Shown here in pieces: positions 57,892 to 60,610 of a stretch of DNA of 64,000 nt. Positions within the stretch are counted from its first letter, which is position 1. Every line of letters starts with the position of its first letter. The translations under genes were made by a program, and so were the position numbers. The notes under the pieces are model-generated. The model saw nothing but the letters and a program-made list of their open reading frames with translations, was not told the DNA's origin and did not search any database. Source of the stretch: Kutzneria buriramensis (GTDB lineage: Bacteria > Actinomycetota > Actinomycetes > Mycobacteriales > Pseudonocardiaceae); NCBI RefSeq assembly GCF_003387475.1, contig NZ_QUNO01000013.1:124001-188000 (forward strand). Direction: 5' to 3'.

Positions 57892-57916
57892 CTACCCGGT
57901 GTGCGGTGAGCTATCC
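57892..57916 (-). promoter_or_regulatory. SigB/SigF-type promoter of the alcohol dehydrogenase gene
   Basis: On the minus strand GGAT (57916-57913), 15 nt, GGGTAG (57897-57892), overlapping the 3' end of the DivIVA-like gene and 31 nt before the ATG at 57861. Confidence 0.55.
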
Positions 57917-58695
57917 GCCTCCTCGCACGGCGCCTCGAGGATCTCCCGCGACCGGTCCAGCAGCTCCAGCGCCGCCCGCAGCCGCTCGGCGGTCCGCCTG
58001 CGCACCGTCTCCAGGGCATCCACCCGCCGCCGGGCGTCGGCGACCAGCGCGTCCGCCTCGGCACGGGTGGACGCCCTCAGCGCGTCCAGTTCCGCCATGG
58101 TCTCCCGGCGGCGCGCGGCCATCGCGGCCTGAAAGTCCTCTTCGGCGAGCCGGCGCTGCGCCGCCGCCCGCTCGTCGAGCTCCGCGCGGCGCGCGGCGGC
58201 CTGCTCGGTGAGGGCCTTGACGTCGGCCTGGGCCTTGCGCATCAGCTCGCCGTGTTCGTTCTCCATCTGCTGCCGCCGGGTGTCGAGATCGGCGGCGAGC
58301 CGGTCGCAGCGCTCCCGCAGGCGGTCCGTGGCGAGTCGGGTGTTGCGCCAGCTCTGCTCGGCCGCGGCCCGAGCCGAGGAGGTGATCTCCGCGGCCTCGT
58401 CACGGGCCAGCTCCACCATCCGCCGCAGTCGCTCGGTCAGCCCCTCGGGGCTCACCGGCGTGCGGCAGACGCGGTCCAGGCGCGACTTCAGCACGGCGAT
58501 CTCGCGGCGCAACGTCTCCACCTGCCGGGCGAGGTCGTCGGCGCGCTGCACCGCCGCGTCCCGATCGGTCGTCAGCAGTCGCAGGTCGGCGTCCACGGCG
58601 TGCAGGTGGCGCTGCACCTGGTATCGGTCGTAGCCCCGCATCACGACGTCGAAGTCGACTGCCAGCGGCACGATCTCCTCGGCCACCACCGTCAT
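57892..58695 (-). CDS. DivIVA-domain coiled-coil protein
   Basis: A 267-residue protein. Its start VDFDVVMRGYDRYQVQRHLHAVDADL is the DivIVA/GpsB membrane-binding turn and helix. Nearly all the rest is coiled coil (about residues 35-250), rich in Arg, Glu and Ala. DivIVA relatives mark curved membrane in cell poles or septa of actinomycetes; this one is shorter than Wag31/DivIVA and monocistronic or paired with DUF6292, which starts upstream with a 24-bp gap. Its role in growth is not proven. Confidence 0.85.
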   Translation of the reverse strand: MTVVAEEIVPLAVDFDVVMRGYDRYQVQRHLHAVDADLRLLTTDRDAAVQRADDLARQVETLRREIAVLKSRLDRVCRTPVSPEGLTERLRRMVELARDEAAEITSSARAAAEQSWRNTRLATDRLRERCDRLAADLDTRRQQMENEHGELMRKAQADVKALTEQAAARRAELDERAAAQRRLAEEDFQAAMAARRRETMAELDALRASTRAEADALVADARRRVDALETVRRRTAERLRAALELLDRSREILEAPCEEADSSPHTG

Positions 58696-59233: not shown

Positions 59234-59270
59234 AGCGGCGTTCCTCGCATCCGAGTCGAGGAACGCCGCT
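59234..59270 (-). terminator. Strong stem-loop terminator of hsp20
   Basis: Perfect 14-base arms AGCGGCGTTCCTCG / CGAGGAACGCCGCT with a 9-nt loop, 42 nt after the hsp20 stop on the minus strand. Confidence 0.85.
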
Positions 59271-59311: not shown

Positions 59312-59749
59312 TCAGGCGTCGATCTGCTTGGGCTCGGCGCTGCCGGCGTCGATGGCGATCTTGCGCGGCTTGGCCTTCTCGGCGACCGGGATCCGCAGCG
59401 TCAGCACGCCCTGCTCGTACTGGGCGGAGATGCGGTCGGCGTCGAGCGCGTCGCCCAGGAACAACTGGCGGGAGAACACCCCCAGCGGACGCTCGGCGAC
59501 CTGCATCTCGACGCTCTCGCCGCGCTCGACCGGGCGGCGCTCCGCCTTCACGGTCAGCACGTTGCGCTCGACGTCCAGGTCGATCGCGCCGGGGTCGATG
59601 CCCGGCAGGTCGAAGTGCACGACGAACTCGTCGCCGGTGCGGTAGGCGTCCATCGGCATCGCCGTCGGGCGGGACCACGTCCCCGGCGCGCCGAACACCT
59701 GCTGGGTCAGCCGGTCGAACTCCCGGAACGGGTCGGTGCGCATCAACAT
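59312..59749 (-). CDS. Hsp20/alpha-crystallin small heat-shock protein
   Basis: A 145-residue small heat-shock protein. The N-terminal arm [14 protein letters not shown] is followed by the alpha-crystallin domain (residues 33-130) with [51 protein letters not shown] and [18 protein letters not shown]. It is an ATP-independent holdase related to Hsp18. GGAGG lies 7 nt before ATG 59749. Its TTGTCA/TTAGAA promoter overlaps an inverted repeat, part of an array shared with the divergent regulator gene. Confidence 0.95.
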
Positions 59750-59795
59750 CGTTCCACCTCCATGTCCCTCGTCTTGGTGTCAACGCGCACCACAG

Positions 59796-59823
59796 TTCTA
59801 ACACGTCATCCAAACGATGACAA
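59796..59823 (-). promoter_or_regulatory. hsp20 promoter
   Basis: On the minus strand TTGTCA (59823-59818), 16 nt, TTAGAA (59801-59796). The inverted repeat at 59805-59821 lies between and over these boxes, ideal for repression. Confidence 0.65.
59805..59821. promoter_or_regulatory. Heat-shock operator candidate, copy 1
   Basis: GTCATC-CAAAC-GATGAC, a perfect 6-base inverted repeat with 5-nt spacer in the hsp20 promoter. Confidence 0.75.
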
Positions 59824-59829
59824 GTGCTC

Positions 59830-59848
59830 TGTCATCCATAGGACGACA
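59830..59848. promoter_or_regulatory. Heat-shock operator candidate, copy 2
   Basis: TGTCATCC-ATA-GGACGACA, one mismatch between arms; shares TGTC(A/G)TC with copies 1 and 3. Confidence 0.65.
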
Positions 59849-59889
59849 TTGCCTCCACCTGGCGAAATTGCCGGCATCGGAGCTACCAT

Positions 59890-59906
59890 GTCGTCTTTAC
59901 GACGAC
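59890..59906. promoter_or_regulatory. Heat-shock operator candidate, copy 3
   Basis: GTCGTC-TTTAC-GACGAC, perfect, with the same 6-5-6 architecture as copy 1. A weaker fourth site with TGTC/GACA ends lies at 59915-59933, over the ribosome binding site of the regulator gene. Confidence 0.75.
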
Positions 59907-59935
59907 TGGACACATGTCATCGGAAGGGCGACACG

Positions 59936-60610
59936 ATGGAGGGCAGCGAACGCGACCTGGCCCGGCAGTGGCTGCGGGACCGGCAGGCCGGCGCCGACGA
60001 CACCCGCGCCGGCGACCGGGCACTGACCGATCTCGCCCTGATCGACGAGATCGCGCACCACCGGCTCGGCCAGCCTGCCGGGAACGAGAACGGCGTCACC
60101 GACGCGCTCGCCGCGCTGACCCTGCTCCGGCACCTCCGCGAGGAGCTGGCCGAGTGGGAGCCGCGGCTCATCGCCGCCGCTCGCGCCCACGGCGCCAGCT
60201 GGATCCAGCTGGCGCCGGCGCTGGGCGTGGCCAGCCGGCAGGCGGCCGAGCGCCGCTACCTGCGGCTGCGGCCCGACGACACCGGCGCCACCACCGGCGA
60301 GCAGCGGGTCCGGGCCGCGCGCGACCGGCGCGCCGGCGACCGGGCGGCCGCCAAGTGGGCGCGTGACCACGCGATCGGCCTGCGCCAGCTGGCCGCACAG
60401 GTCAGCGCCCTCGACGGCGACGCGACGCTGGTCGGCGACGCTCAGCACCACGTCGACACCGTGACGGCGGCATTGGGCGAGTCCGACAGCGCCGCACTGC
60501 TCGGCCCGCTCACCGAGGCCCACCCGCACCTGCACGCGAGCCATCCGGCGCTGGCCGACAAGATCGCCACCGCCACCGACGAGGGCAACCAGGCGCGGCA
60601 GATCAGCTGA
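59936..60610 (+). CDS. HSP18-type transcriptional regulator
   Basis: A 224-residue protein. A helix-turn-helix at residues 80-110 (HGASWIQLAPALGVASRQAAERRYLRL) lies in the middle, flanked by acidic and Ala-rich helices. Its sequence resembles proteins annotated in Pseudonocardiales as HSP18 transcriptional regulators; it is not HspR (MerR-type) or HrcA. It is divergent from hsp20, and three or four similar inverted repeats lie in the 186-bp gap. GAAGGG precedes ATG 59936. Repression of hsp20 and itself is inferred. Confidence 0.75.
   Translation: MEGSERDLARQWLRDRQAGADDTRAGDRALTDLALIDEIAHHRLGQPAGNENGVTDALAALTLLRHLREELAEWEPRLIAAARAHGASWIQLAPALGVASRQAAERRYLRLRPDDTGATTGEQRVRAARDRRAGDRAAAKWARDHAIGLRQLAAQVSALDGDATLVGDAQHHVDTVTAALGESDSAALLGPLTEAHPHLHASHPALADKIATATDEGNQARQIS

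What the first reader, a model, noticed from the sequence alone, without database searches (positions are those of the whole stretch)
59749..59936. Operator array shared by hsp20 and a non-HspR, non-HrcA heat-shock regulator
Three similar inverted repeats (two with an exact 6-5-6 layout, GTCRTC-N5-GAYGAC, and one 8-3-8) plus a weaker fourth fill the 186-bp gap between hsp20 and the divergent HSP18-type regulator. One lies between the -35 and -10 of hsp20 and another over the regulator's ribosome binding site. This predicts autoregulated repression by a poorly studied protein family. The regulator's HTH and the repeats are seen; the binding is inferred.
Basis: partly seen in the sequence, partly recalled or inferred. 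Interest (0 to 1): 0.78.

Follow-up and report, generated by a model that had tools for sequence, protein, structure and literature searches.

The report
RheA heat-shock operators beside hsp20
A small heat-shock gene and its neighbouring repressor share a set of repressor-binding sites of the type already known from Streptomyces, and the gene's message may carry a second, RNA-based lock over its start codon that has not been tested.

Summary
Four GTCRTC-N5-GAYGAC sites (three perfect, one with 1 mismatch) fill the 186-bp gap, in two pairs whose sites start 26 bp apart. No shuffle of 5,000 had more than one site. The system is not unknown: the regulator is homologous to proteins annotated 'HSP18 transcriptional regulator', that is RheA, and RheA, hsp18 and the operator rheO are described in Streptomyces (PMC11754652, passages). 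Of 80 related loci, 68 have a divergent hsp20, and 68 of 68 carry a site pair 26-28 bp apart (0 of 6,800 shuffles). Site 1 overlaps the hsp20 -35.

Computed only: an 11-nt element at the predicted hsp20 mRNA 5' end (59778-59788) is complementary to the start codon and codons 2-4. RNAalifold on 74 leaders predicts just this helix. The element scores under 10 of 11 in 27 of 27 hsp20 genes without rheO. Against it: tree-aware covariation is not significant (p=0.10), the paralogue contrast rests on about two events, and the window helix is predicted to melt only near 70 C. The RheA reading is near certain; the RNA lock is somewhat under even odds.

The parts
59312..59749 (-). hsp20/hsp18 small heat-shock protein, 145 aa
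   Evidence: Pfam HSP20 1.1e-20
59936..60610 (+). RheA-type repressor, 224 aa; all-helical model, putative helix-turn-helix at residues 89-111 (my reading of the helices)
   Evidence: 49% identity over 199 aa to a Streptomyces protein annotated HSP18 transcriptional regulator; AlphaFold2 mean pLDDT 87.9, pTM 0.63
59804..59822 (.). operator O1 (CGTCATC-CAAAC-GATGACA), overlaps hsp20 -35 and spacer
59830..59848 (.). operator O2, starts 26 bp from O1
   Evidence: pair 26-28 bp apart in 68 of 68 linked loci
59889..59907 (.). operator O3, first site of the regulator-side pair
   Evidence: a second pair also in one congener, L006
59915..59933 (.). operator O4 (1 mismatch), over the regulator's likely ribosome-binding region
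59818..59823 (-). hsp20 -35 TTGTCA, embedded in O1
   Evidence: found in 76 of 76 leaders by pattern TTGTC[AGT]
59795..59800 (-). hsp20 -10 TAGAAC, 17-bp spacer
59778..59788 (-). 5'-leader element GCGCGTTGACA; predicted +1 is 59788 (inferred from the -10, not mapped)
59738..59748 (-). start-codon region (last two bases of ATG to codon 4), partner of the leader element; pairing may extend to 59735-59737 with 59789-59791
   Evidence: (pair I3)

Best explanation
This is a RheA/rheO/hsp18-type heat-shock switch. At normal temperature the 224-aa repressor, probably as dimers, binds the palindromes. Binding at O1 covers the hsp20 -35 and spacer and so excludes RNA polymerase. The pair O3/O4 lies just before the regulator gene and throttles the repressor's own synthesis. 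Heat inactivates the repressor and both promoters open. In most relatives one pair (O1/O2) is seen; in this Kutzneria genome and one congener a second pair lies on the regulator side. Shown here: the sites, their conservation and spacing, their position on a conserved hsp20 promoter, and their position beside hsp20 or the regulator gene (20 of 20 well-matched pairs in 21 genomes). Inferred: binding, dimer state, repression, autoregulation and heat sensing, by homology with Streptomyces RheA.
For: Four sites against at most one in 5,000 shuffles. Homologues on three annotated Streptomyces plasmid loci lie divergent to Hsp20, two of them named HSP18 transcriptional regulator. 68 of 68 linked loci (of 80 fetched) carry a pair, each site with at most 2 mismatches, 26-28 bp apart, against 0 of 6,800 shuffles. 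In 21 genomes, 20 paired sites with at most 1 mismatch were found and 20 of 20 lie next to hsp20 or the regulator gene; reversed-pattern control 0. In two congeners hsp20 is unlinked from the regulator gene yet keeps the pair. RheA, rheO, autoregulation and reversible thermosensing are described for Streptomyces (PMC11754652, passages).
Against: No binding or expression data for this organism. The sequence of the experimentally studied RheA was not in hand, so identity to it was not measured. No NCBIfam model matches the protein. No sigma-70-type promoter passed the simple scan; the -35/-10 rest on conservation. The fixed 26-bp pattern found nothing in 6 of the 21 genomes, four of which (G003, G015, G026, G032) have a regulator homologue; some of these use 27-bp spacing or weaker sites. 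The pair is not exclusive to hsp20 and regulator genes: L214 has it before another gene.
Confidence: 0.93

Rival explanations
1. A second, post-transcriptional lock also exists: the hsp20 mRNA 5' end (59778-59788) folds back on the start codon and codons 2-4 and hinders translation until heat, or ribosomes, open it. It would add to the RheA switch, not replace it.
For: RNAalifold on 74 leaders (cut by me to begin 3 nt before the element) predicts just this 11-bp helix; 98.2% of 814 cells pair, 18-51% when slid. Duplex energy averages -18.4 kcal/mol at the start codon and -11.0 to -13.5 at seven windows further into the gene. Codon 2 is TTG in 74 of 76, against 12 of 129 Leu at codons 6-20; codon 4 is CGC in 75 of 76, against 47 of 152 Arg. 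Element at >=10/11 in 15 of 17 hsp20 with rheO and 0 of 27 without. Element below 10/11 by eye in 7 of 7 hsp20-less loci, four of which keep TTGTCA and a -10. A paper on hsp18 is titled 'transcriptional and posttranscriptional regulation' (title only).
Against: Double changes are nearly absent (1 pair; 218 of 500 shuffles reach it). On a tree 37 of 65 element-side changes keep pairing, 31.4 expected, p=0.10. rheO changes only twice on the hsp20 tree, so the paralogue contrast is not independent; by pairing alone 3 of 27 genes without rheO also reach 10 of 11. TTG at codon 2 also occurs in 10 of 27 genes without rheO. Predicted melting is near 70 C for the window; 18 of 76 helices are below half already at 20 C and 52 of 76 are still formed at 42 C; shuffling the element raises the mean unpaired start codon only from 0.38 to 0.50 at 30 C. 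Of 30 Streptomyces genes with CTN at codon 2, 12 pair at 9 or fewer of 11.
Confidence: 0.45
2. The conserved leader element is a DNA feature: a third RheA half-site (TGTCAAC, 26 bp from O1) or a promoter-proximal element at +1.
For: It starts 26 bp from O1 in the window, like O2 on the other side, and lies at a fixed 40 nt from the -35 in 55 of 76 loci. It resembles the left half-site.
Against: No right half. The offset differs in Streptomyces (47-48 nt in six of six). Four hsp20-less loci keep rheO and the promoter hexamers but not the element. It does not explain the fixed TTG and CGC codons.
Confidence: 0.3
3. The 5'-terminal helix protects the mRNA from 5'-end-dependent decay instead of blocking translation.
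For: The element lies at the predicted 5' end in most of the 76 leaders, and the window helix is predicted very stable.
Against: The partner is the start codon, which would also hinder translation; no decay data.
Confidence: 0.15
4. The sites bind HspR or HrcA.
For: Both regulate heat-shock genes in Streptomyces (PMC11754652, passages).
Against: The motif differs from CIRCE and HAIR (recalled), and the neighbouring protein has no HrcA or HspR family match.
Confidence: 0.02

Closest known systems
RheA-rheO-hsp18 of Streptomyces albus / S. albidoflavus J1074
   Same: Divergent gene pair, small heat-shock protein, regulator homologous to the group annotated HSP18 transcriptional regulator, operator in the intergenic gap, proposed autoregulation (PMC11754652, passages)
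   Different: Gap of 186 bp with two site pairs, against 127-129 bp and one pair in the three annotated Streptomyces plasmid loci read here. Whether the published rheO comprises one or two palindromes was not seen
HrcA-CIRCE and HspR-HAIR
   Same: Heat-shock repressors acting on inverted repeats (recalled)
   Different: No family match of the regulator to either; motifs differ (recalled)
Bacterial RNA thermometers (ROSE, FourU; names and features recalled)
   Same: Leader RNA hides translation start signals of small heat-shock genes
   Different: Here a long-range helix from the mRNA 5' end to the start codon, with the Shine-Dalgarno in the loop and only partly paired; no Rfam match; opening at heat-shock temperature not shown
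Protein plus RNA thermosensor of Yersinia lcrF
   Same: Combination of a thermolabile regulator protein and an RNA thermosensor on one gene (start of abstract of PMC3280987 in listings)
   Different: Different proteins, RNA and genes; virulence and not heat shock

Membership tests
RheA repressor / rheO / hsp18 | Regulator gene divergent to a small heat-shock gene | tested here: met
RheA repressor / rheO / hsp18 | Homologous to proteins named HSP18 transcriptional regulator | tested here: met
   49% over 199 aa; 38 plasmid records with a match, none covering 80% of the query
RheA repressor / rheO / hsp18 | Homologous to the experimentally studied S. albus or J1074 RheA | not tested
   That sequence was not in hand; the 2000 and 1996 papers are not held
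RheA repressor / rheO / hsp18 | TGTCATC-N5-GATGACA operator (motif recalled) in the gap | tested here: met
   four sites with 1, 1, 3 and 2 mismatches to that exact motif; three perfect and one 1-mismatch to the relaxed core
RheA repressor / rheO / hsp18 | Operator over the rheA -10 and start of transcription | tested here: inconclusive
   O3/O4 lie just before the ATG, but the rheA promoter could not be placed
RheA repressor / rheO / hsp18 | Reversible heat inactivation of binding | not testable with these tools
   needs protein
HrcA or HspR | Family match of the regulator | tested here: not met
   no NCBIfam match; in Pfam only a sub-threshold DUF6362 match
RNA thermometer | Leader structure hides the start codon or Shine-Dalgarno | tested here: inconclusive
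   two bases of the start codon lie in the predicted helix; Shine-Dalgarno unpaired probability about 0.5 on average and 0.78 in the window at 30 C; prediction only
RNA thermometer | Opens between growth and heat-shock temperature | tested here: not met
   predicted midpoint about 70 C in the window, 52 of 76 still formed at 42 C; a prediction only
RNA thermometer | Match to a described thermometer family | tested here: not met
   window 59600-60000: three matches at E 5.5-6.2, none near its gathering score

The most novel reading that the evidence does not exclude
RheA-controlled hsp20 messages of actinomycetes carry a second, built-in lock: the very 5' end of the mRNA pairs with the start codon and codons 2-4, so that leak-through transcripts stay silent until heat. 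One gene would have both a protein and an RNA gate. It could be the post-transcriptional control named in the title of the 1996 hsp18 paper (title only).
Probability: 0.38. Interest if true: 0.72.

Novelty: new variant of a known kind. Interest (0 to 1): 0.5.

Why it matters
It finds the heat switch known from Streptomyces in other actinomycete genera (among the 80 loci: Pseudonocardiales, Kribbella, Catenulispora, one Micromonospora) and shows a fixed paired-site layout that can be searched genome-wide with almost no background. It also yields a precise, cheap hypothesis for post-transcriptional control of hsp18: an mRNA 5' end complementary to its own start codon. If right, thermo-inducible switches built from the intergenic region alone may lack part of the natural control.

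Tried and rejected
HrcA and HspR were rejected: no family match. NCBIfam gave no relevant model for the 40 relatives of alignment A3 (three unrelated families, best E 0.0086). Comparison of the model with PDB gave no match with E <= 0.001. By sequence the A3 profile gave seven PDB hits at E <= 1, the best 9.8e-07 (Tako8, a 31-position stretch with no stretch passing on its own), which I do not interpret. The simple promoter scan found nothing. An Rfam search of window 59600-60000 at E <= 10 gave only chance-level matches. A literature search by operator letters was useless. Searches on hsp18 post-transcriptional control or an RNA thermometer in Streptomyces or actinobacteria listed no paper whose title or abstract start describes one; most subscription papers are not held.

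Tests that went against the RNA reading: letter-dealing covariation (10 of 500 for cells paired in the 11-pair core, 218 of 500 for double changes; no excess for the 14-pair version); tree-aware substitutions (p=0.10); independent pairs too few (trait never in the opposite direction); melting too high; weak pairing in 12 of 30 CTN loci. The compensatory-looking locus L199 (same gene as L220) is not significant against shuffles (z -0.8); L156 and L092 were not shuffle-tested.

Rows dropped: the scan kept the best 80 of 553. 12 of those 80 have no divergent hsp20 within 700 bp and were left out of the 68. Of these, L080, L120 and L137 have a co-directional hsp20 with the element and start pairing; L087 and L111 are cut by contig ends; the other seven are L071, L076, L078, L084, L092, L123 and L141. 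The seven hsp20-less loci cited for element loss are L071, L076, L078, L084, L123, L141 and L057; they were judged by eye, and L076 and L123 keep decayed copies. L092 is left out of that count: it keeps the element next to a short hsp20-like start. L194 and L207 were not used. The paralogue set is 30 loci returned plus 15 that I picked from its list; one had no hsp20 hit. Seven paired-site matches with 3 mismatches were not looked at. In one search some matched places were not fetched. One search used 130 of 138 genes. In one search, 13 of 76 rows were given a 19-bp spacer by my regular expression; by eye they fit 17.

Full report
OBSERVATION. The gap between hsp20 (59312-59749, minus) and the regulator (59936-60610, plus) is 186 bp and holds four palindromes at 59804-59822, 59830-59848, 59889-59907 and 59915-59933, start-to-start 26, 59 and 26 bp. 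Three fit GTCRTC-N5-GAYGAC exactly and one has a single mismatch. Dinucleotide shuffles of the gap give no site in 4,960 of 5,000 and one in 40. In the 12-Mb genome the single exact pattern lies at 15 places, 3 of them here, and its reversed control at 8. The paired pattern (26-bp spacing, up to 3 mismatches) lies only here, twice, with 0 in the control.

WHAT THE REGULATOR IS. The protein matches no NCBIfam model, and in Pfam gives only a sub-threshold DUF6362 hit. By tblastn it matches 38 plasmid records, 36 of them Streptomyces; in the 20 rows listed the feature under the match is 'HSP18 transcriptional regulator', 'type III effector protein', 'hypothetical protein' or none. In the three annotated plasmid loci read, the homologue lies divergent to an Hsp20 gene (a fourth had no annotation). 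Identity to one of them is 49% over 199 aa. The literature names this system RheA-rheO-hsp18 (PMC11754652, passages): RheA binds rheO in the rheA-hsp18 gap, represses hsp18 and itself, and lets go reversibly on heating. The primary papers are not held. From recall only, the published operator is TGTCATC-N5-GATGACA. AlphaFold2 gives an all-helical model (mean pLDDT 87.9) with no PDB fold match at E <= 0.001. A same-genus genome of the genome search has a contig of the same length and position as a Kutzneria viridogrisea record (2,230,384 bases), so the window is most likely from Kutzneria.

CONSERVATION. In 68 of 80 hsp20 lies divergent within 700 bp. In the 130 bp before hsp20, 68 of 68 have a site with at most 1 mismatch (1.0% of shuffles) and 68 of 68 a pair, each site with at most 2 mismatches, 26-28 bp apart (0 of 6,800 shuffles). 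With other spacers from 0 to 12 at most 29 of 68 have a site, at spacer 8. O1 is stricter than O2 (56 and 42 of 68 perfect), and a third site nearer the regulator occurs in five loci, all Actinokineospora. The doubled pair was seen in the window and one congener (L006). In 21 genomes the fixed-spacing pattern found 20 paired sites with at most 1 mismatch, 20 of 20 beside hsp20 or the regulator gene, and the reversed control had none. Two more with 2 mismatches also lie by hsp20; seven with 3 mismatches were not looked at. Six of the 21 genomes had no match, four of them with a regulator homologue, partly because spacing there is 27 bp. In two congeners hsp20 and the regulator gene are unlinked, yet the hsp20 genes keep the pair. 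In a wider sample 22 of 394 genomes of the class have an exact pair, control 0; of the 22 loci returned, 19 hold hsp20 and three do not (L194, L207, L214).

PROMOTER. In 76 leaders (68 named loci, the window and seven others) the sequence reads TTGTCN - 17 bp - TANNNN, mostly TAGAAC or TACAAC (62 rows by script, 13 more by eye, one with 18). O1 overlaps the -35 and the spacer, which explains repression of hsp20 by exclusion of RNA polymerase. O4 ends two bases before the regulator's ATG. The regulator's own promoter was not located.

A SECOND CONSERVED ELEMENT. At the predicted +1 most leaders carry GCGYRYTGRCA, 40 nt from the -35 in 55 of 76; in the window it is 59778-59788. It is complementary, with G-U pairs, to the last two bases of the start codon and codons 2-4 (AUGUUGAUGCGC), which repeat finder had listed as pair I3. 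RNAalifold on 74 distinct leaders, cut to begin 3 nt before the element, predicts just this 11-bp helix. 98.2% of 814 cells pair, against 18-51% when the partner is slid by 1-3 columns. The mean z of the duplex against shuffled leaders is -3.2; in 36 of 76 loci none of 200 shuffles reaches it. For the window leader alone the fold z is -2.7, and 3 of 200 shuffles do as well. Codon 2 is TTG in 74 of 76 and codon 4 is CGC in 75 of 76, though at codons 6-20 of the same genes TTG is 12 of 129 Leu and CGC 47 of 152 Arg. The gapped pattern of element plus start region was found in 5 of 396 Actinomycetota genomes, six places in all, each at a start reading [10 protein letters not shown] or [10 protein letters not shown]; the reversed control had none. 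In the 19 hsp20 loci the element scores 10 or 11 of 11 in 17.

TESTS OF WHAT IT BELONGS TO. Among 44 distinct hsp20 genes of related genomes, the element at 10 or 11 of 11 is in 15 of 17 with rheO and 0 of 27 without; mean duplex energies are -20.3 and -12.2 kcal/mol. By pairing alone, without regard to the letters, 121 of 138 genes with a rheO pair and 3 of 27 without reach 10 of 11. Where the regulator gene stands without hsp20, the element is below 10 of 11, by eye, in seven of seven loci, while four of them (L071, L076, L084, L141) keep TTGTCA, a -10 and rheO; L092 keeps the element beside a short hsp20-like start. This ties the element to the hsp20 message more than to repressor binding. 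Some loci with other codons 2 have leaders that look matched: L156 (CTG GTC; leader GCCAGCA) and L092 (CTG; leader CAGCA), L199 (CTC, CGT; leader ACGCGCGGGC). These are suggestive only: L199 is not significant against shuffles (as L220) and the other two were not shuffle-tested.

RESULTS AGAINST. True double changes are rare (1 pair), as one arm codes for protein. On an hsp20 tree 37 of 65 element-side changes keep pairing, 31.4 expected, p=0.10. rheO changes only twice on that tree, so the paralogue contrast is in effect one or two events. TTG at codon 2 occurs in 10 of 27 genes without rheO. In 30 Streptomyces genes chosen for CTN at codon 2, 18 pair at 10 of 11 and 12 at 9 or fewer, and the mean z is only -1.0. 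Calculated opening is not in the heat-shock range: the window helix falls below half near 70 C; 57 of 76 are formed at 30 C, 52 at 42 C, and 18 are below half already at 20 C. Shuffling the element raises the mean unpaired probability of the start codon at 30 C only from 0.38 to 0.50. A DNA role (half-site 26 bp from O1) or a role in mRNA stability is therefore not excluded.

LITERATURE BEARING ON THE LOCK. A 1996 paper title announces post-transcriptional regulation of hsp18 (reference list of PMC10434288; content not seen). A published reporter driven by the rheA-hsp18 intergenic region was leaky at 28 C, but placing rheA behind a strong promoter removed most of the leak (PMC11754652, passages). 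That is explained by more repressor alone and does not support a missing RNA lock.

VERDICT. The less expected result is the complementarity of leader and start codon, which is worth a direct test.

Noticed in passing
window 59235-59269: Perfect 13-bp hairpin with a 9-nt loop (GCGGCGTTCCTCG arms) between hsp20 and the DUF6292 gene; the RNA around it folds with z -5.1. Perhaps a transcription stop, though no long T run follows.
   Followed up: partly
L214 about 1500-2713; window 57892-58695: In another genome of the family an exact rheO pair precedes a DivIVA-like coiled-coil gene 50% identical to the window gene two genes downstream of hsp20: the RheA regulon may include it.
   Followed up: partly
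L076: No hsp20 match; under the same promoter hexamers and rheO lies a 266-aa reading frame that was not identified.
   Followed up: no
L015, L033, L058 (G027): One genome has two regulator-hsp20 pairs plus two more hsp20 genes with rheO.
   Followed up: no
L080, L120, L137: In three Kribbella loci hsp20 and the regulator gene run in the same direction, with two operator-like sites and the leader element upstream of hsp20.
   Followed up: partly
PLSDB records, e.g. L037: RheA homologues are annotated 'type III effector protein', probably a naming error.
   Followed up: no
G001: The regulator gene (78% identical) has no paired operator nearby at up to 3 mismatches, although two distant hsp20 genes do.
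   Followed up: no
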